Shown here: one piece after another, positions 17,642-51,636 of the stretch | Numbering within the stretch: the stretch's first letter is position 1 | How the letters are laid out: each line of letters opens with the position of its first letter | NCBI GenBank assembly: GCA_012976225.1 | Contig: JAAVVG010000014.1 | Coordinates: forward strand, 310,001 to 374,000 | DNA: 64,000 nucleotides | DNA from: Golubevia sp. BC0850 | Lineage: Eukaryota; Basidiomycota; Exobasidiomycetes; Golubeviales; Golubeviaceae | Direction: 5' to 3' | Program-made: the position numbers and the translations under genes | Notes under the pieces: model-generated | What the model was told of the DNA's origin: nothing | Database searches by the model: none | What the model saw: the letters and a program-made list of their open reading frames with translations, nothing else

Positions 17642-20600
17642 ATGAGCACAAAGAAGAACATTGATGGAGAGGATGTACTTCCAGGTTACAGAGGTAAGTT
17701 AACTCGATTTTCTACTTCCCATTCCATCCATCTCCTCTCCATTCCCACTCTTTTCTCACCCTATCTTCCTTTTCAATGACTCTGAATCCATTCCTGTATC
17801 TCTCTCTCTCTCCCCGTCCCCCTTTCGCAGGTAACTTGGATGCCTCACAGCAAGCATCTCTCAGAGAAATGTGGAGAAGATTCTTTGAACTCTCAGAGAA
17901 GAACAAGCACGTTTCTGAAGAATTGGATAGGAAAGGTGGTCCAAAATTCGCTTCAAAGGACAAATCTGCAGCTCCTCCAGCCAATGAGAAGGATGCTGGA
18001 AAGAACATTCCAAAGGGAGATGCCGCTAAAGAGGAAGCAAAGAAAATGGAGGAAATGAAGGAAATGAACTCCTTCTTGGAGAAATACGGAGGTCCTTACC
18101 TCTTGAGAGCTTGTTGGGAGTTCAACAAGGTGAGTTTTAGAAACTCTTTCCTTGAAGAGAGTGATCCTTTCAACAGGTGTGGGGAAATCGGAGATCGAAT
18201 TTAGATGGCAGTTTGGAGAGGAAGGTCACACAAGTGGAACTCCTCAGAATTGGTCTTCCTTCTTGATGGGTTTCTCGTTTTTGTGTCAGCTTTATTTCGA
18301 TTCTCAATCTCTTGAGAGAGTTGGAGGGAGGAATCCCTGTGGATGAGAGAGGTGATAGGAGACTAGGAGTAGCTCGTTCCGGAAGAGATGGAGATAGCAT
18401 CCAGTCAACAGTTTCTTGTAATTTTCTGGTTTCTAGGATTTTTCAGAAGTCCACCTTGATCTTCGTGTCCTTCCCCGTCTTCCCCCTCTTCGCTTTGGCT
18501 TCTCAACTGACAGCTTCACTCTTCCTCCTTCCCCCCGTCTCTCATCTCGCCCCACAGCATGACAATCCAGACTCTTCGATGCTACGTTTCCTTCGTGCTC
18601 GTAAATGGGATGTAGACAGAGCTTTGGCTATGTTAGCAGCTGCTTTGAAGTTCAGATTTGAGAAAGACATCGAAGGAATCATCCACAAGGGAGAAGATGG
18701 TCTCAAAGATGTCCCTGGTTTCTTGAACCAATTCAGAAGAGGTATCTCTTACATTAAGGGAAACTCTGATGTCGGAGAGTACCCCATCTACTTCATGTGA
18801 GTTTCACAAGGTGGCGAAGAACGAGCAGAAAATCTTGAATTCATTGGGCTTCAGATTCTTACGAGTTTCTTTCTTCTGTCTTCACCTCCACCATTCTACT
18901 TTACAGTCACGTCGGTCGTCATTTCACTAATGCTCAAAAGCACGAAGTCTTGCAACAATTCGTTCTATTGGCTATGGAGAATGCTCGTCTTTTGACTACT
19001 CCTCCTTACGAGAAGGCTGTCATCATCTTCGACATGACGGGATTCGGTCTCAAGAACATGGATTGGCAATGTGTCCTCTTCTTGGTTCAATGTTTGGAAG
19101 CTTAGTGAGTTCCCAAAGCGAAGGAAATCGGAGACGCTCCTTCCAAAAGAAGCTCTCCAACCCCCTTCTGACCTCCGCCTCCTACCTTTCTCTCCATTCG
19201 AACAGCTACCCTGAATCTCTTCAGCGTATCTATGTACACGGAGCTCCTTGGATCTTCAAAGGTATCTGGTCCATCCTACAGCCTATGCTTGACCCAGTCG
19301 TCAGAGACAAGATCAAATTCTCTTCCAAAGCTCCAGAGCTAGTCGATCACATCCCTCCTACCAAGCTCAGAAAGGGTATGGGAGGTACCATGGACTGGGA
19401 TTGGGAATACATCGAGCCAAAGCCTGATGAGAACGATCTTCTCAAGGACACCGAGACTCGTGATGCCATTCAAGCCGAAATGAAGGCCATCACTGACGAT
19501 TACACTGAAACCACCAGGAAATGGATAGAAGCTGGAGACACCGACGACACTGCTCCGGAACTAACTCACAAGAGAGACGTTCTTGGAAAGCAGATGCGTC
19601 TCAAGCAATTCCAACTTAACCCTTACATCAGAGCTGTCACCTGCTACCAGAGAGCCGGAATTCATCACGAAGATGGTACTATCCACTGGGACTACCCTCA
19701 ACTAGATGGTCCAACCAAGACTCAAACCGTCGGTGATCGACACTCTATCCCTGAACTCATCAAGTGGTTGAGGGAGAACAACGAGGACACTCTCGAAGAC
19801 TCTGTCGGAGGTAGACTAGGAGCTTGCGGATCCGAGCGCAGCACTGCTGTCGGAGGAAACAGAAACAAGGCTGGTGGATCCAACTCCAAGGCTGGTAAGG
19901 GAGCCGCAGCGGCTGGAGCAGGAGCTGCCGCCGCCGCTTCCAAGTCGAAGTCTCAACCTCAAGAACAGCCCCAGCCAGTCGAAGCCGAGAAGGCCGCTGC
20001 TCCTCCAGCAGAGGAAGCTCCAAGGTCTCAGCCTACTAACGGACAAGCCAATGGATCTTCTCAAGCCAATGGAGCTGAGAACGGAGAGCCACAATCTTAC
20101 ACTGGAGCTATCTACGGAGCTGTAGCTGGTGGAGCCGCTGCCGCTGCTGGAACTGCGGTTGCAGCCGCTTCTTACGTCACTGGTCAGAAGAATGAAGATG
20201 AGAATTCCAGAGCCGATGAACACGATGACGAGGAAGACAACTACGCTCAAGCCGAAGACATCGACGACTACGACGAGGACGACGCAGGATCTAACGCTTC
20301 CAGCGACTCCATCACTCCAGAGACCGCTGTCCTTCCTTCTCACATCGGAAAGAAGGCACCCACTGCCGCCGAATGCAAGATCGACGACAACGACTGTCGC
20401 GAGGATCTAGCTGTCGTTCGTGAGGCTATGTCTCTCTTCCTCAACTCTCGTATGAAGGAAGCTGAAGAGCTCTGCATGAAGGGAGCTGATCACAGACTCT
20501 ACAAAGCCGAAGGAATGGCTCTCATCAACTCTGTCAAGTCCATGTTGACTTTCGAACCTGCTGACTTCGAGACTGCTATTCTCTGCTGCAAGCACTCCAT

Positions 20601-22514
20601 GGCCGTAGCTAGCACACTACGTAAGAAGAAGGGAGCTGTCTCCAAGCTCATGGGAGGAAGCAAGCAATCCAACTTGAAGGGAATGACTTTGGTTCAACAA
20701 CACGCAGAACTCGTCTTCGCTGAATCTCAACTCCTCAAATCCGTCTTAGGAATCTTCTACGCTGGAGACTCGATCGCCTTCTTGAAGCAAGCTTTCTCTC
20801 TAAGAAGCGCTTACTTCCTCATGAGGGAACTCTTCCAATTCGTCGAGTACTGTGATGGAGAGGCCGAAGAAGCTCAGATCTCTGGACGTAAGGCTACCAC
20901 TACTGTTGATCAAGATTTCCGTTCTGGAGTCTACGTAGGAAACGGTCTCTGCTCTTTGGTTCTTTCCCTTCTCCCAGCAAAGATGCTTCAAGCTCTTCAA
21001 GGATTCGGTTTCACTGGAGATCGCAAGTTCTCCTTGGAAGTCTTCGCTAGAGCTGGAGGTTGGACCAAGCATCGTCCTCTTCCTTCCATCTCTGCCGACG
21101 AGGAAGGAGTCAGACGTCCTCTCTGTGATATCGCCATCTTGACTTACCATCTAGTCATCAGTGCTTACGTCCCTGTCACCGGTGAGTATTCTTTGAGGTC
21201 GAGGGAGATGAAGTCCAGTCCGCCTTTGACATCTTGATCCTTTCCTGACTCTTTCGCTTTTCTTCCCCTTTCCCCCTTCTCTTCGCTCCTCTAGGAATCG
21301 ACTTCGAGTTCGCCGACAAGATCTTGTCCTGGAACTTGGTCAGATTCCCAAACGGAATCTTCTTCCTCTACTACTCAGCTCGTCTATATGCTGCTCAAGC
21401 TCTCCCAGAGAAGGCTATCGAGTACTACCGTAACGCCATCGAGAGTCAAAAGGAGTACAAGCAGTTGCACCACCTCTGCTTCTGGGATCTCTCTCTCACC
21501 TACCTCTGCACTTGCGACTTCGCTCGTGCCTACGAGTGCTACGACGTCCTCTCGAGAGAATCCAACTGGTCCAAGGCCATCTACCAATACGCCAAAGCCG
21601 TCATGCTCTACGAAACTGGAATGGATGACAGAGCCAAGAGCGCTACCATCATGCGCACTGTCTCCAAGCTCGTCAAGAAGGTCGCCGGTCGTCAAATCCC
21701 CTTCGAGAGATTCGCCATGCTCAAAGCCAAGAAGTACATCGCTCAAGGAAACAGACTTCCACTCCCAGCTCTCGAGTTCTCCTACCTCTGGCACTGCATC
21801 GGTCAAACTCCAGTCTTCCTGCTCGTCGAGAACACTCTCACCAGAATCGATGAGTTCATCGACGAGCTTGAGAGCTACGTCGATCCAAAGTCTTACGGAA
21901 CTGGAGAGAACGAATACTGGTCAGCCTACTGTCTCGCTTTCTTCCTTCGTGGAGTTGCTCTCAGATTCTTGGCTCACCCTGAACCACACACTCTGGTTCG
22001 TCTACCAGCTGACGATGCTATCGGACCAGTCGAGGAGATTCAACAAGATGCTATCCAATCCTTCAAGAAGGTCTTCGAGCATGGAGCCAAGCTCGACGAG
22101 GTCGATCGTTACTTGGTCTACTTCGCTCACTACGAGTTAGGAAGACTCAGAGGATGTATGGGACAACAAGATGCTGCTAAGGCCGAATTCAAGTTGGTCA
22201 TGTCTGGAAAGCCTTTGGAAGCCAAAGGAAAGGGTGGAATTGGTGGTAACTCCAAGGCTTCTTACATCCTTAGCAACATGTGTCAAGTCAGAGCTCATGC
22301 GGCTTTGGAGACCATGAGGATTCAAACTTCTCGATCAAGAGGTTCTTTCTTCTCTGACGCTGGTTCTATCGCTGGTGGTTCTTCAATCGGAAGGTCCGTT
22401 TCAACTAGGGATTCCGTTACGTCTTCGATCAGGTCAACTCCAAGCAGGAATACCACCGTCTCTACCAGATCTGGCAGATCCGACTCAAGGTCAACCGACT
22501 ACTCCGGAAAGTAA
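17642..22514 (+). CDS. SEC14/CRAL-TRIO lipid-transfer domain fused to IML2/TTC39 (DUF3808) repeat domain
   Basis: Six exons (17642-17693, 17831-18129, 18558-18796, 18907-19104, 19206-21181, 21295-22514) give 1,327 aa. Residues about 118-330 are a SEC14 module. The N-lobe is SMLRFLRARKWDVDRALAML. The lipid-binding lobe includes VIIFDMTGFGLKNMDW, YYPESLQRIYVHGAPWIFKG and WSILQPMLDPVVRDKIKF. A disordered linker follows (about 430-650) with an Ala/Gly run (AVAGGAAAAAGTAVAAASYV) and an acidic patch. From about residue 655 the IML2/TTC39 family begins: LFLNSRMKEAEELC, FYAGDSIAFLKQAFSLRSAY, NLVRFPNGIFFLYYSARLYA and ALPEKAIEYYRNAI (TPR-like). The tail is Ser/Arg-rich. SEC14 proteins move phosphatidylinositol and other lipids; IML2 is linked to lipid-droplet-dependent clearance of inclusions. 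Both modules are joined inside one 1,976-nt exon, so the fusion does not depend on a splice guess. Confidence 0.9.
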
Positions 22515-23371: not shown

Positions 23372-25688
23372 ATGTCCTCCAAGCTTCTATCCACTCTCTA
23401 CGAAGTATGGGGAGAACCCTTTTTGACAAAGGTTGGACTACTGCCCAATCGTAACACACATGATTTCACTTTCTCAAGGTACAAGATTCCACTCTCATCC
23501 ATGGAGAAACGTCTGCATGCGAATGAGGACTTGGAAGTCTGGTTTGGGACCTGTAAGGATGAAGACGGAAACTTCCATTGGTACCAAGTCTGGGAAGACA
23601 AGAAGGTCAGGGGAAGGTTCGTCGAAGGCAAAGGATTCGAGGGAAGAAAGGGAGATCTATTGTTCATCCATGGGACTGGTGTTCATGGAGGTACCTTTGC
23701 TGTGAGTAGAGAATTCTAATTCGCAACGGAGAAAGATTGGAGATGAAGAATTGAAGGGAAAGAGGCCGTTGGAAAACGAGCCTCTCCGATTGAAGCGCGC
23801 GCGTCGACGACAAAAAGGTCGAACCCCTCTGTCTTCCTCTCACTCCTCCTACTCTCTCCTCCTAATTCTCTCCTCCTACTTCTCTCCGAACTTCAACCTT
23901 TCACAGTCACACTCTCGTAGATATCTTGATGCCGGTTTCCGTCTAATCGTTCCAGATCTATCAGGACATGGCTATTCATCTCATTTACATGTCTATGTTC
24001 CATTCATGAGCCTCTACACCAAAGGTTTACACTCTATCCTTCACGATGTCAATCACAAAGACGACTGTCTCTTAAACATTGGTCGTCCTTTGAAGAAGTC
24101 GGAAAGGAAAAAGACTTTCATCTTAGGATTGAGTTTCGGAGGTCTGGTCTCTGTGTACTATGGTCATGAATATCCAAATTCGGTTAGAGATACTGAAGGA
24201 GGCGAAGATGAGATTCCTATTGATGGTATGGCAGTGGTCGGCCCGATGATTGGGTACTCGAAAGATTCAATCAAGCTTCATCCAGTGGTTCAGAACATCA
24301 TCAGATCTGGTGTCTCTTTCTTACAAGCTGGAAGGTGAGTTCTCAAGAATGTGGAAACTCAAAACATTTTTCTTCGATGAACGACGCTGATGAACATTTC
24401 CATTTTCCTTCTCGTTACTGTGATCAGGCTGGAGCTTCTAGTTCCTCACAAGAAGTCCGTCGATCGGGATCCCAAGGTCTACGCCAAGTTGGTTTCGGAA
24501 GATCCACGCTCACATCAAGGAGCTTTCAGAGCCGCTCATCTGGTTTGCATCGACGACGCAATGAAGTTCTTAGAGCAAAACGTCTCCTCTTTCAAGCATC
24601 CTCTCTTCATTCAACAAGGAGGCCAAGACAGAGTCGCCGACACAAACATTGCCTACGAATACCTAACAAGAACCTCAACAAGCAAAGAAGACAAGAAGAT
24701 GATCATCTATCCAGTTTGTCAACACGTCATTTACAGAAAAGCGAAGACGGAAGAAGAAGATAAAGCTGGAAGGATAGTGGTGATGCGAGACAACGTAGAG
24801 TGGATGGTCATGAGATGTACTCCTATTTCTAGCCAAAATAGAGGCAGGGCTGCTGAGAAGCAGAAATTGGGAATGGAAAGGTCTATGAGCTGGAAAAGCG
24901 ACGCAACCTTGGTCGAAGATCAAGATTCAGGTAACGACAGCAGTAGCGATACTGATGTCTCGGAATCAGAGCAAGGTTCGCTCTTTGGTTCAGAAGCCGA
25001 ATCCGAACCAGATAACGATGACTTCTCGTTCTCAAGGCTTACTAGACGCCACCGTCGCCATCAATCATTCAACTTTCCAACCATCGCAAACTCCTCAGAG
25101 CACAACTTCAGCTACACTCCAGAAAGTGAAATGGAACCTGAGACCCCCAAGTTCTCTGCTCAATTCGTTAACAACCCTACTTCTTTCTCCTCAAGACCGT
25201 CAAATCTTTCGAAGAAGAGCGGCCTTCCATCTCTGTTCCTGGAGAAGAACGATTCAGTCCAGAACAACTTATCAAGCATCTTCTCTCCTTCGATGTTGTC
25301 TCCGATCCCATCTCCAACTCCTAGAGCTAACCATTTCTCATCTGTTATTCGCAAGAGCCCACCCAAAGACTTCTACTCTCATGCCAACCGACCCCACTCT
25401 CAAAGCCTCTCACTTCTACCTCAAAGCCAATTTGCCAATTCAAATCTCTCTTCTTCTCCAACCAAACTCAACTTGAAATCTCCACTCTCTTCGACCAAAT
25501 ATCATTTCAACTTGGCAGAAATCGAGAGAGTCTCTTATTTAGATCACCATTTAACAGCCAAAGCTCATCGTTCTACGCTACCCAAGATCCACAGAGACTT
25601 CTCAGACAAGAGAATCTTCAGACAGAAATGGAGCATGCACGATGCTCTAAGACCGTATGAACTTTCTTTACCTGTCGAATCAGACTGA
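23372..25688 (+). CDS. Alpha/beta hydrolase of the monoglyceride-lipase/S33 type with long disordered C-tail
   Basis: Exons 23372-23701, 23907-24334 and 24428-25688 give 672 aa. The N-terminal 330 residues are a lid-containing alpha/beta hydrolase: LLFIHGTGVHGGTFA (oxyanion HG), FRLIVPDLSGHGYSS, FILGLSFGGLVSVYYGHEY (GxSxG elbow with Ser), GMAVVGPMIGY, QGGQDRVAD (acidic residue) and IIYPVCQHVIY (His). This order matches monoacylglycerol lipase-like proteins, whose substrates are lipid esters, so a lipid substrate is likely but inferred. The C-terminal 300 residues are Ser-rich and acidic, low complexity, with short islands such as FSRLTRRHRRHQSFNFP that could be phosphorylation targets. No signal peptide. 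The gene begins 857 b after the SEC14-IML2 gene on the same strand. Two adjacent lipid-related genes could be coincidence. Confidence 0.78.
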
Positions 25689-46406: not shown

Positions 46407-49400
46407 ATGAAAGAGGATGCAAAAGAGGTCGGTGGATCATCCAAAGTAGAAATCAAGGATGGAATGCCAAACAAAGGACTACTGGAGGTCAACTCAACAC
46501 ATGCTTCTACTTCTACTTCAGGTCTTCCTGTCGCTTCTCCTTTATCCCTATCATTCCCAGTTTCATCAAAGCATCAACCATCAGATAGACTACCTTCAAT
46601 CTCAGTTTCTGTTTCAGATCAACATAAAGAGAAAGAGAAAGAGAAAGAGACAGGGACTGGGAAGGGCAAAGGGAAGCAGAACGAGCAAACACCTGTCAGG
46701 TCTACCCCATCAAGAGAAAGGATTAGAGCCAATTCAACACCTTCCAAGCTTTCGTTACTATCAACTTCGACTCCTATCACGGCCAATCATGAACCTCAAC
46801 CCACAACTCCCTTCACAGCAACTAGCAATCCTTCTTCAGCATCTCCCTTCCCTTTAGCTTCAACTCCTTTGCCCAAGTCGTCAAGACTTCGAAGAACTCC
46901 AGGCACTTCATCCTTTGGTAACAATGCTTCATTCTCTTCAAGTTCTTCTTCGGAAGGTACCCGAACTCCCACTTCGAGCTCCATACAAAGAGTCTTCAGC
47001 ACTTCAGCTTTGGAAGGAGGTGTCATTCCTGATGCTGCACTCGCTTCTGCTGTCGAGTTCCTACCTCCGATAGTTCGCGATGGGGAAACAAGCTACGCTG
47101 AAGTAGCTGCAAGAGCTCATCAGAGACAGAGAGTTGATTCGAGTGGGAGAGGAGCTACCGCAACTAGAGGTGAAGGTGAACCACCTCCTTACGATGAGGC
47201 TGGATCCACTTCAACAGATCCTAGCTCCTCCCAAGCCAAGGAACAGGAAGGATTTCAGAGCAGAGGGAGACCTCGATCGACTGCCGAGACGTCCAAGTCC
47301 AGGGCGAGTAGAGGAGGTGGACACAAAAGAGGGGAGACAGAGGGAGATGCTGCTGCTGATGAGGCAGGGACAAGGAGAGGTGAATTGAAGCGATTCACTC
47401 TCTGGGAAACTAAGACTGTGAGTCCAAAGGGTCTATCAGTGGTTGTGAACCGAGGTGCAAGATGGGCGGGGCTTGAGAAGTCAGCAAGATCGAGATGGTA
47501 TGTTTCATGATTTGATTCTCACCTTCTGAATCCTTATTACCTCCTCTCTTTCTCAGAGATTCTACCTAGTAGCATACAATGTCTCTCAAACTAGGTTCCA
47601 GATTCTCAAGGTGGATAGGACGCCGCCTGTTCTCATCGACGAACCCAACTCTTCCGGAGCCACTGAATCTCAAGCTTCAACATCTGCGAATGAGCCAGGA
47701 TCAAGCGGCGCCGCAGAGAAGGAGAGACTAGGAGAACCTTCTCATGCTCCCACTGGATTAGCAGGGGCGAGTGGAGGAGGATCTGGTGCTCAGAACCCAA
47801 GTTCAAATCTCTCGAAACCAACTGCTGGCTTCTCAGCTTCTGGAGAGCGTTATCTGTCTTCAGACGTCTCGGAAGTTGCCCAGCTCTGCTCTTCAACCGA
47901 AGCCATGCTATCAAGGGTCGCTGCAGCTCAGAGCAACACAGTCTTTGGAGGAACAGCGACAAGCACGACGAATGCTGCAGCCACGAGCTCTACTCCTGGA
48001 GATGGCAAGGATGGACACGGCGCCTCAGCTTCCACGATTTCAGCTCCTGCATCTGCTCTTCTTAGCTCTGTAGGATCAGGTTGGACCGGGGCTGCGAGCA
48101 GGATCCTCAATCCAGGCAGCTTCCTAGCTGCTCCTTCCACTCCAACTGCATCTGCTTCTCCTTCTACTCCGAACGACAAGAATATTAACTCCGCCAACGC
48201 AGCAGCTGGTTCTTCAAATCCCACCTCAAATCCTCCTCCCCCTAGAAAGTCCAAGAACAACCCTCAGGATTACAAATGGGAGCTCAACGTGACTTCTGAC
48301 AGAGTCATCTACACTCGAACTCAGGTTACAGACTTACTCTCTCTGTTGAGAGAAGGGAATCGCTCCTCGGGTGGTCTCCATGAGGTCGGAAGGTTCTTTG
48401 GGATAGTAGGATTCATCAGATTCACTTCTACTTACTACATGGTCCTTATCTCTCGTCGATCGGTCGTAGCTTTGGTGGGAGGTCACTACATCTATCACGC
48501 CGACGAGGCCAAGATCCTTCCGGTATGTCATCCTTCAGTTCTTTCCAGCTTGAACTCCAACAGGACGAAGGCTCAGGACCAAGAAGAACAACGCCTCCTT
48601 CACGCCTTCGGTCAAGTCGACTTGAGCAAGAACTTCTACTTCAGTTACACCTACGATCTGACTCAAACTCTCCAAGAGAACCTAACGGCTGATCCTTTAG
48701 GTCCTTCAGCTCCGCCAAGGAACACGACGGCATGGGGATTCGCTGAGAAGTTCGTTTGGAATCACTATCTTCTCATGCCGGCGTTCGGTTCTTCTGTTCA
48801 CTCTCGTCCAACTCGAAATGGACACAACTCTCAAGACGACGATCCGAATAGTAACTACGGCAGAGAATGGGTCTTGCCTCTGGTCTACGGATTTGTCGAT
48901 CAAGCAAAGCTCAGCGTTCTCTCTCGGACAGTACATGTCACTCTGATAGCGAGACGAAGTAGACACTTTGCAGGAGCCCGGTTCTTGAAGAGAGGAGTCA
49001 ACGAGAGAGGTCAGGTCGCCAACGATGTCGAGACGGAGCAGATCGTCGCCGAAGCTGCAACGACACCTTTCTTCGCTCCTGGAGGTAGAAGGAAGAATCG
49101 TTCGAATGGAAGGAAGAAGGTCAAGAAGATGAGGACGGAGCTGGACCTCGAAGGTCGATGCATTGACTATGTCTTGGAACCAGGCGGTAGCTTTACAGAA
49201 GAGAACGAGAGCGGAGAAGAGGAAGAAGACGACGATTCAACAAGCCCTTACGACAGCTCCCCCAAGTTCACCTCCTACGTCATGCATCGTGGCTCGATCC
49301 CTCTCTCTTGGACTCAAGACTCCACCAATATGTCGCCTCGACCTCCCATCGAACTCAGCGTGGTAGATCCTTACTTCACTCCTGCCGCTCAACACTTCAA

Positions 49401-51636
49401 TCAAATGTTCTCAAGGTACGGAACTCCAGTCTTGGTCTTAAACCTCATCAAATCGAAAGAGAAATCTCCAAGAGAAGAGAAGCTTGGAAAAGCTTTCGCA
49501 GAATGCATTCAGTATCTCAATCAATTCTTGCCCAACGACAAGAGGATCAAGTACATAGCTTGGGACATGAGCAGAGCCAGTAAGAGTCGAGATCAAGACG
49601 TCATCGGAGTTCTGGAAGATATCGCTGAGGAGACTGTAGAAAGTACTCAGTTCTTTCACTCTGGACCTGAAAGCCATCGAAATACTTCCACTACTTTCGA
49701 CGATCAAGAAGACTACGACTCTGATGGTTCAGTGGATTCGGCAGCTGCTTCGAACAAGCCCAAGTCGAAGCGCAGAATTCATATCCTCTTGCAACAAGGG
49801 ATCGCAAGAGTAAACTGCGTCGACTGCCTGGATCGTACCAACGCCGCTCAATTCGTCATTGGGAAAGCTGCCTTTGGACATCAACTCCACGCTCTAGGTC
49901 TGCTTCATCATCCCAATCTACCTTTCGACTGCGATGCCGTCAACATGTTGACCGAGATGTATCACGACCTGGGAGATACGATCGCTTTGCAATACGGAGG
50001 TGAGTTCGATAGTAGGAAGCGGGGAAGGAAGGGGGTGGTTTCTCAGTCTCTCTGTTCTCTGAACATACTCCCTTCTTTCTCTTTGCAGGATCTCATCTTG
50101 TCAACACAATGGAAACCTATCGTAAGATCAATCAATGGACCTCTCATTCTAGAGACATGCTGGAAGGTCTCAAGCGCTACTATTCCAATTCCTTCGTAGA
50201 CGCGGACAAACAGATGGCGATCAATCTCTTCTTAGGAATAAGAGCCGACGCGCCCGACATCTCTCCCGACACTCCTCTACTTGAGGAAGACGATAGTCAG
50301 GAGGTAGAGACGTCTTTGGTCAAACGAAACGGAAACGAGAGACCTCATTACTGTCGATGGTACGTTCCTGCCAATCTCAATCCAAGAGGAAGTCTCAAGG
50401 AGAGAGAGAAGCGATTGAGAGAGGTTGTCAACAATGACGCTGGTTTCTGGGCTGAGTACTACCGACCTAGACTCTTTACCGAGTAAGCCGTCAGAATGTG
50501 AGGGTAAGGTTTTACACTGTATCAAGCCGCTGACTCTCTTTCTTGAACCTTTCTCTTCACCTCTCTTCTGCCTCTTCTCCAGTCTCATGAGACACCATGC
50601 TTTCAAGATGACTGCAGTGCATCAACATTCTCCCGCGATCACATCAGCCTACTCGGGCTCGTCCCAAGCTTCTTCAAATCAATCTTCGTTTGGGCTTCCG
50701 TCAGCTTCAAGTTCTGGCTTCTCTTCCATTGCCAGCTCTTCAAACGCAACTTCAGCTCCTACCGGTTCAGAATTGGCCGAAATTTCCCCTTTTCAAGCTA
50801 GGTATGGACCAGGTCAGCATCCTCCAGCACCTCGTCGCAACGCTCAGAGCAGAATCAGAAGATCTGGATCTTCGAGCTCTCGAATCCTGACTACCAACGC
50901 TGATTCCTTATCTTCAAGCATGGTAAGTGGCTCAGCAGCTTTTAACGCACCTCCCAGAGCCATCATAGGAGGAGTGAGAAGATGGATGAGCTTGAACAGA
51001 CCTGGATCTTCAGGAGCCAGCAACTCAGAAGCGACGGCGGCTGGAACCTCTCAGCTCAGAAAGAAGTCGAAGAGATACGATGAGCTTTCAACCGCTGGTG
51101 GAGGTGGCGGAGGAACCTCAACGAGGACTGGAGAACCAACCAACGCCAATCCAGGTTCAACGAATCTGGTTGCTTCGGGAGACTTGGTTCGAAAGTTGCT
51201 CTGTCCAGAGGTCAGCATCGGAGAAGCAAGAGAATATCAATGGTACTCTTCTCAATTCGCACCAGATGAACATGAGTCCTCGCTGACCGAATCCGGAGTA
51301 GAAGGTAATCCACTAGGACCTCAACCTCGTTCGACATGTGGAGGGACAGGAGCAAGAGGAGTCTCGTTGACTGCAGCGGGCGCTTGGGCTACTTCAACCG
51401 AAGGAGTTTCAGAAGTGGATCTGGCTATGTATGAAGGTGGAGTTGGACTGGCTTCGGGAGATTTGGAGAAAGTCAAGGAACTGGTCGAGACGGAGGACTT
51501 GTTTGATCCGGCTGCTTCTGCTATCTATGCCAATGCAGTCGACGTCAGGAAATTTGCTTCGAATACAGTCGATCAGAAAGGGATGAGTCAAGAAGCCAGA
51601 TATGCTAAATGGTTGAATAGAAGTTGGGCTGATTAG
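46407..51636 (+). CDS. FIG4: SAC-domain phosphoinositide phosphatase FIG4, with long extensions
   Basis: PI(3,5)P2 5-phosphatase that works with Fab1/PIKfyve and Vac14 on vacuole or endosome membranes. Exons 46407-47417, 47557-49999, 50089-50482 and 50583-51636 give 1,633 aa, much longer than yeast Fig4 (about 880 aa). The first 330 residues are Ser/Thr/Pro-rich and disordered. FIG4 homology begins at KRFTLWETKT/RFYLVAYNVSQTRFQILK. An insertion of about 220 Ser/Ala/Gly residues follows before KWELNVTSDRVIYTRTQV. Then come GRFFGIVGFIRFTSTYYMVL, FYFSYTYDLTQTLQENL, WVLPLVYGFVDQAKL and the catalytic CX5R loop RVNCVDCLDRTN (Cys about 1091). [20 protein letters not shown] and LKRYYSNSFVDADKQMAINLFLG follow. 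The tail is Ser/Gly-rich and ends KWLNRSWAD. Identity is secure. The extensions could regulate localisation; that is inference. Confidence 0.92.

What the first reader, a model, noticed from the sequence alone, without database searches (positions are those of the whole stretch)
17642..22514. SEC14/CRAL-TRIO lipid-transfer domain fused to an IML2/TTC39 module
One protein carries a complete SEC14 lobe (residues about 118-330) and a complete IML2/TTC39 domain (about 655-1265). Both ends meet inside a single uninterrupted 1,976-nt exon, so the joining is not an artefact of splice guessing. SEC14 proteins exchange phosphatidylinositol and other lipids. IML2 is tied to lipid-droplet-dependent clearance of protein inclusions, and TTC39 relatives affect sterol handling. 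A physical link would place a lipid-transfer module directly on an IML2-type protein and suggests the IML2/TTC39 family acts with lipid exchange. The linker holds an Ala/Gly run (about residues 560-590) that might contact membrane.
Basis: partly seen in the sequence, partly recalled or inferred. Interest (0 to 1): 0.78.

Follow-up and report, generated by a model that had tools for sequence, protein, structure and literature searches.

The report
Lipid-transfer protein fused to IML2
This fungal gene makes one long protein that joins a lipid-carrying part to a helical scaffold part related to yeast Iml2, and many smut fungi and relatives share the same join, which suggests the two parts work together on membranes or fat droplets.

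Summary
Confirmed. A six-exon gene (17642-22514, +) encodes 1327 aa with a Csr1/Sfh2-type Sec14 lipid-transfer module and an Iml2/TTC39 TPR module; the join lies inside one 1,976-nt exon. It is not private: 49 of 71 homologues listed carry both domains. Of the 23 with an organism name, 22 are Ustilaginomycotina and one is labelled as a plant, probably contamination. In quick trees the fused copies of each half form one supported group, so one early fusion is the simplest reading. The genome also keeps a stand-alone Iml2 and stand-alone Csr1-like genes, so the fusion is an extra paralogue. The Sec14 half is conservative: two presumed phosphatidylinositol-contact residues are invariant in 49 of 49 rows. 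The Iml2 half is derived: 12 of 82 conserved columns replaced. An Ala/Gly, glycine-zipper-like motif sits in the linker of 21 of 27 nearer rows and 0 of 22 farther ones. Yeast Iml2 is reported to bind the Sec14-family protein Pdr16 on lipid droplets, so the fusion reads as a covalent version of a known kind of partnership. Lipid transfer, site and effect on inclusions are inferred. My searches found no paper describing it.

The parts
17642..22514 (+). CSR1-IML2 fusion gene, six exons, 1327 aa
   Evidence: splice model with GT-AG introns; Pfam; 49 of 71 listed homologues with both domains
17642..17693 (+). exon 1 (start codon 17642-17644)
17831..18129 (+). exon 2: N-terminal extension and start of CRAL_TRIO_N
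18558..18796 (+). exon 3: rest of CRAL_TRIO_N and start of CRAL_TRIO
18907..19104 (+). exon 4: middle of CRAL_TRIO
19206..21181 (+). exon 5 (1,976 nt): C-terminal part of the Sec14 domain with E266 (codon 19213-19215) and K298 (19309-19311), Csr1-type C-terminal extension, linker, N-terminal half of Iml2
   Evidence: codon places worked out from the exon model
20098..20184 (+). Ala/Gly, glycine-zipper-like segment in the linker (residues 561-589)
   Evidence: coordinates worked out from the exon model
21295..22514 (+). exon 6: C-terminal half of Iml2 and Ser-rich tail, stop at 22512-22514

Best explanation
It is a two-module protein of the Ustilaginomycotina: a Csr1/Sfh2-class Sec14 lipid exchanger joined by a variable, acidic linker with an Ala/Gly helix to an Iml2/TTC39 TPR scaffold. 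Most likely the Iml2 arm, perhaps with the linker helix, holds the protein at lipid droplets or ER (or at the protein assemblies that Iml2 binds), while the Sec14 arm loads and delivers phosphatidylinositol and possibly a squalene-type isoprenoid there. It would do in one chain what yeast does with two, where stand-alone Iml2 binds the Sec14-family protein Pdr16. Shown here: the gene, both domains, the fusion in many relatives, the paralogues, the conserved presumed PI-contact residues, the diverged Iml2 half. Inferred: lipid transfer, cargo, site, any link to inclusion clearance.
For: Both domains far over cut-off. Fusion in 49 of 71 listed homologues. Fused Iml2 halves in one group, SH-aLRT 100; fused Sec14 halves in one group, SH-aLRT 98. 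Sec14 half matches yeast Csr1 (7wvt) over 88-412 at 1.3e-52, against 1.8e-7 for the best Pdr16 chain. E266 and K298, which I take as counterparts of Pdr16 E235/K267 and Sec14 E207/K239 by motif and equal spacing of 32, are invariant in 49 of 49 rows (residues from passages of PMC4331669). Sec14 half keeps 47 of 54 conserved columns, none replaced. Yeast Iml2 interacts with Pet10 and Pdr16 on lipid droplets, and a soluble sterol derivative from droplets is considered to mediate clearance (PMC10301655 passage). Sfh2 transfers squalene in vitro (PMC7385082 passage). Ala/Gly segment in the linker. Iml2 part predicted as a TPR-like solenoid.
Against: The yeast partner named is Pdr16, a different Sec14 branch from Csr1. 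The Iml2 half has 12 of 82 conserved columns replaced, so Iml2's usual activity may be altered or gone. The Ala/Gly segment has a best mean hydropathy of 1.44 over 19 residues, under a usual transmembrane threshold of about 1.6 (threshold recalled); the tight motif is absent from all 22 rows P0027 onwards, of which 9 are named Malassezia and 13 unnamed; and a similar segment precedes the stand-alone Iml2 on C44, so it may not serve the fusion as such. Eight rows with only one of the two halves lie inside the fused groups and were not shown to be fragments. No interface model was made: the fused proteins with both whole domains exceed the 1200-residue limit.
Confidence: 0.5

Rival explanations
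1. The Sec14 half is the working part and presents PI to a lipid kinase for phosphoinositide signalling; the Iml2 half is only a diverged TPR adaptor that recruits partners, with no remaining role in inclusion clearance.
For: Sec14 half is conservative and Iml2 half derived: 0 of 54 against 12 of 82 conserved columns replaced. A stand-alone Iml2 is kept on contig C44. PI presentation to kinases is one proposed role of Sec14 proteins (PMC9925530 passage).
Against: The Iml2 half is well conserved among the fused proteins: majority-residue fraction 0.58-0.92 in blocks of 25 along 651-1275, which a generic adaptor would not need; the reported yeast Iml2-Pdr16 contact favours a specific link.
Confidence: 0.3
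2. The fusion is a historical accident: two independent activities on one chain, held together by inertia.
For: The linker is long (163 aligned residues in the window, 84-375 in relatives) and mostly variable, so the halves need not touch. Some rows inside the fused groups carry one half only and could be true splits.
Against: Joined copies found in all three classes looked up; that the two families joined are also reported to meet in trans in yeast makes an accident less likely.
Confidence: 0.15
3. Two neighbouring genes merged by a wrong gene model or read-through.
For: No RNA-seq was available; the splice sites are inferred.
Against: Uninterrupted frame through the linker; 49 of 71 listed homologues, from several sources, carry both domains; each half forms one supported group.
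Confidence: 0.02

Closest known systems
Yeast Csr1/Sfh2 (PDB 7wvt), Sec14 family
   Same: Sec14 half aligns over 88-412 with Csr1 67-394 of a 400-residue chain at 1.3e-52, including the region after the CRAL-TRIO lobe; presumed PI-contact Glu and Lys kept
   Different: Csr1 ends there; here about 900 further residues with a second domain follow
Yeast Iml2 / animal TTC39 (PF10300)
   Same: PF10300 at 1.7e-82; TPR-like solenoid predicted; 49 of 82 conserved columns kept in at least 90% of fused rows
   Different: Carries a Sec14 domain in front; 12 of 82 conserved columns replaced, with changes at the DD pair 1131-1132, R1064 and H1193
Yeast Iml2-Pdr16-Pet10 association on lipid droplets
   Same: Brings an Iml2 protein and a Sec14-family protein together (PMC10301655 passage)
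   Different: In trans and with Pdr16; here covalent and with a Csr1-type module
Mixia osmundae P0071, Csr1-like domain with a cytosine-deaminase domain
   Same: A basidiomycete Csr1-like protein joined to another domain
   Different: Partner is a deaminase on the N-terminal side (sequence); whether it is a gene-model merger was not checked

Membership tests
CRAL-TRIO/Sec14 lipid-transfer family | CRAL_TRIO_N and CRAL_TRIO domains over the curated cut-offs | tested here: met
CRAL-TRIO/Sec14 lipid-transfer family | PI-contact Glu and Lys (Sec14 E207/K239) | tested here: met
   E266 and K298, 49 of 49 rows; correspondence by motif and equal spacing, residues from passages of PMC4331669
CRAL-TRIO/Sec14 lipid-transfer family | binds and transfers lipid | not testable with these tools
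   needs purified protein
Csr1/Sfh2 subfamily | closest to Csr1 among solved Sec14 proteins, over nearly its whole length | tested here: met
   182.9 bits for Csr1; next 54.6 (SEC14L2), Sec14 50.1, Pdr16 34.1
Csr1/Sfh2 subfamily | groups with Csr1 to the exclusion of Pdr16 and Sec14 in a tree | not tested
   the tree held only Csr1-like rows
Iml2/TTC39 family | PF10300 over the curated cut-off | tested here: met
   278 bits against a cut-off of 22.2
Iml2/TTC39 family | TPR-type helical solenoid | tested here: met
Iml2/TTC39 family | family-wide conserved residues | tested here: inconclusive
   49 of 82 columns kept, 12 replaced
Iml2/TTC39 family | role at inclusion bodies and lipid droplets | not testable with these tools
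   needs microscopy

The most novel reading that the evidence does not exclude
The fusion is a single-chain machine that carries a sterol-pathway lipid (squalene-type) or PI from lipid droplets to the place where Iml2 acts, and so reveals that Iml2/TTC39 proteins in general work by holding a Sec14-type lipid carrier at a target. The replaced residues of its Iml2 half would mark the surface that stand-alone Iml2 uses to hold its carrier in trans, no longer needed once the two are joined.
Probability: 0.2. Interest if true: 0.78.

Novelty: new variant of a known kind. Interest (0 to 1): 0.55.

Why it matters
How Iml2 and the TTC39 proteins act at the molecular level is, to my knowledge, unclear, although they have been tied to lipid droplets and protein inclusions and to sterol regulation. 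A shared fusion to a lipid-transfer domain points to a direct partnership with a Sec14-type lipid carrier and gives a single protein on which it can be tested. It may also serve as a shared derived character of the Ustilaginomycotina.

Tried and rejected
Gene-model artefact: rejected.

Rows with one half only inside the fused groups: P0050, P0051, P0052, P0072 and P0075 (Iml2 only), P0054, P0173 and P0174 (Sec14 only). P0051 and P0052 begin in linker-like sequence with the Ala/Gly segment and P0052 is marked partial; P0173 is marked partial; P0054 ends in what looks like a shifted frame; P0174 also carries PF01156, unlike the others. I read these as fragments or merged models. P0050, P0072 and P0075 were not resolved and could be true splits. 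Short near-identical Iml2 pieces (such as P0073, P0074, P0076, P0085, P0095, P0152) were not placed in a tree.

Age of the Iml2 duplication: the tree joins stand-alone Ustilaginomycotina Iml2 (the C44 copy, Tilletia, Malassezia and two unnamed rows) with Pucciniomycotina (SH-aLRT 95), but an AU test does not reject fused plus stand-alone Ustilaginomycotina as one clade (p 0.29), so it is open whether the duplication predates the subphylum.

Ancestral neighbourhood: no eukaryote genomes with context were on hand. A weak sign that they were not neighbours there.

Whole-fusion structure: not possible under the 1200-residue limit; P0047 (984 aa) lacks the start of the Sec14 domain. No Iml2-family chain among solved structures by sequence: 3 matches for P0072, all weak kinase chains.

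Papers: (CRAL-TRIO with IML2) found 0; some searches gave listings (some capped: 30 of 46, 15 of 29, 15 of 18, 8 of 9, 8 of 34) in which no title or abstract start described the fusion. I read passages only of PMC10301655, PMC5675994, PMC11767658, PMC4331669, PMC7385082, PMC9925530, PMC10225987 and PMC6121590. PMC5675994 holds IML2, CSR1 and PDR16 only as entries of one long Nfs1 pull-down list, no evidence of contact. The primary Iml2 paper of Moldavski and co-workers was not read.

Full report
What is there. The gene at 17642-22514 (+) splices to 1327 codons from six exons with GT-AG introns. Pfam finds CRAL_TRIO_N at 107-144, CRAL_TRIO at 178-323 and Iml2-TPR_39 at 669-1093, all over the cut-offs. 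The 1,976-nt exon 19206-21181 holds the end of the Sec14 domain, the linker and the first half of Iml2 without interruption. The window lies in an assembly of 25.77 Mb in 64 contigs; the best-scoring named relative of the protein is from Violaceomyces palustris.

How widespread. A full-length search listed 71 proteins from 7994 scored candidates; it scored only the candidates sharing most words, so absence from the list means nothing. 49 of 71 carry both PF00650 and PF10300 (P0001-P0049), 19 Iml2 without Sec14 and 3 Sec14 without Iml2. I looked up five of the named species: Violaceomyces (Ustilaginomycetes), Tilletiopsis, Jaminaea and Tilletia (Exobasidiomycetes) and Malassezia (Malasseziomycetes); the placing of the other named ones is recalled. 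The named Iml2-only proteins are from Tilletia, Pucciniomycotina and Tremellomycetes (placing recalled).

Origin. In a tree of 81 Iml2 rows the fused copies fall in one group of 28 rows (23 annotated as fused, the window among them, 4 that I had labelled fragments, 1 unnamed Iml2-only row), SH-aLRT 100. In a tree of 74 Csr1-like rows the fused copies fall in one group of 20 (17 fused, 3 labelled fragments), SH-aLRT 98, joined at 99 to an Ustilaginomycotina group of stand-alone Csr1-like proteins. Both are quick searches without bootstrap on rows that I chose. One early fusion is the simplest reading. The window's genome also holds a stand-alone Iml2 on C44 and Csr1-like genes on C12, C61 and C44, all outside the fused groups. 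The age of the Iml2 duplication is open.

The Sec14 half. Its best solved relative is yeast Csr1 (7wvt, 1.3e-52), matched over nearly the whole chain; Pdr16 is far behind. In an alignment of the window with 48 fused relatives (P0047 left out as truncated), E266 and K298 are invariant in 49 of 49. The residues that I take as equivalent are needed for PI binding in Pdr16 and for PI transfer by Sec14 (PMC4331669 passages). The fused rows (20) keep 47 of 54 columns conserved in the 52 other rows and replace none; tested likewise, the other groups replace 14 of 65, 4 of 60, 3 of 57 and 4 of 62 (P0233 and the C44 copy left out).

The linker. Residues ~470-632 vary strongly in sequence and length apart from an Ala/Gly segment at 561-589. 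A tight motif (Tyr, then Gly at every fourth place) is present in 21 of 49 rows: 21 of 27 among the window and P0001-P0026, 0 of 22 from P0027 on. A looser zipper pattern anywhere in the linker is present in 26 of 49 (21 of 27 and 5 of 22), in some rows first met in another Ala/Gly run; whole-linker shuffles of the looser pattern give 0.07 rows in all. The shuffle breaks up the Ala/Gly clustering itself, so it shows clustering, not zipper spacing; the tight motif had no shuffle control. A similar segment precedes the stand-alone Iml2 on C44. Hydropathy is borderline for a membrane helix.

Function. A review states that yeast Iml2 associates with lipid droplets through Pet10 and Pdr16, and that inclusion clearance is considered to be mediated by a soluble sterol derivative from droplets (PMC10301655 passage). 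Reviews report PI transfer and in vitro squalene transfer for Sfh2, another name of Csr1 (PMC7385082 and PMC9925530 passages; synonymy recalled). TTC39B lowers hepatic LXR-alpha by ubiquitination and affects cholesterol in mice (PMC6121590 passage). From these and the fusion I infer a tethered lipid carrier at droplets or ER. No experiment here tests it.

Novelty. The architecture is present in public databases, some members named 'related to CSR1 - phosphatidylinositol transfer protein', but the searches listed under Tried and rejected showed no paper that describes it; that library lacks most subscription papers. It is a new combination of known modules, retained and probably useful, not a new kind of system.

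Noticed in passing
window 24381-25688 (+), open frame downstream of the fusion: Hydrolase_4 match (PF12146, 2.5e-8), an alpha/beta hydrolase family that includes monoglyceride lipases (recalled); whether it stays next to the fusion elsewhere was not tested.
   Followed up: partly
window 47530-50199 (+): SacI homology domain (PF02383, 8.9e-82): a likely phosphoinositide phosphatase in the same window, about 25 kb away.
   Followed up: partly
G000:C44:41896-45168 (L012): Stand-alone Iml2 of the same genome has its own Ala/Gly segment in the N-terminal extension, so this feature may belong to Iml2 proteins of this group rather than to the fusion.
   Followed up: partly
protein P0071 (Mixia osmundae): Csr1-like domain with an N-terminal cytosine-deaminase domain; fusion or merged gene model.
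   Followed up: no
protein P0139 (Umbelopsis isabellina): Iml2 protein that also carries PF09511, named by a source as T4 RNA ligase 1-like.
   Followed up: no
protein P0016 (labelled Cichorium endivia): A fused protein with 78% identity to the window's over half its length, labelled as a plant; probably contamination of that assembly.
   Followed up: no
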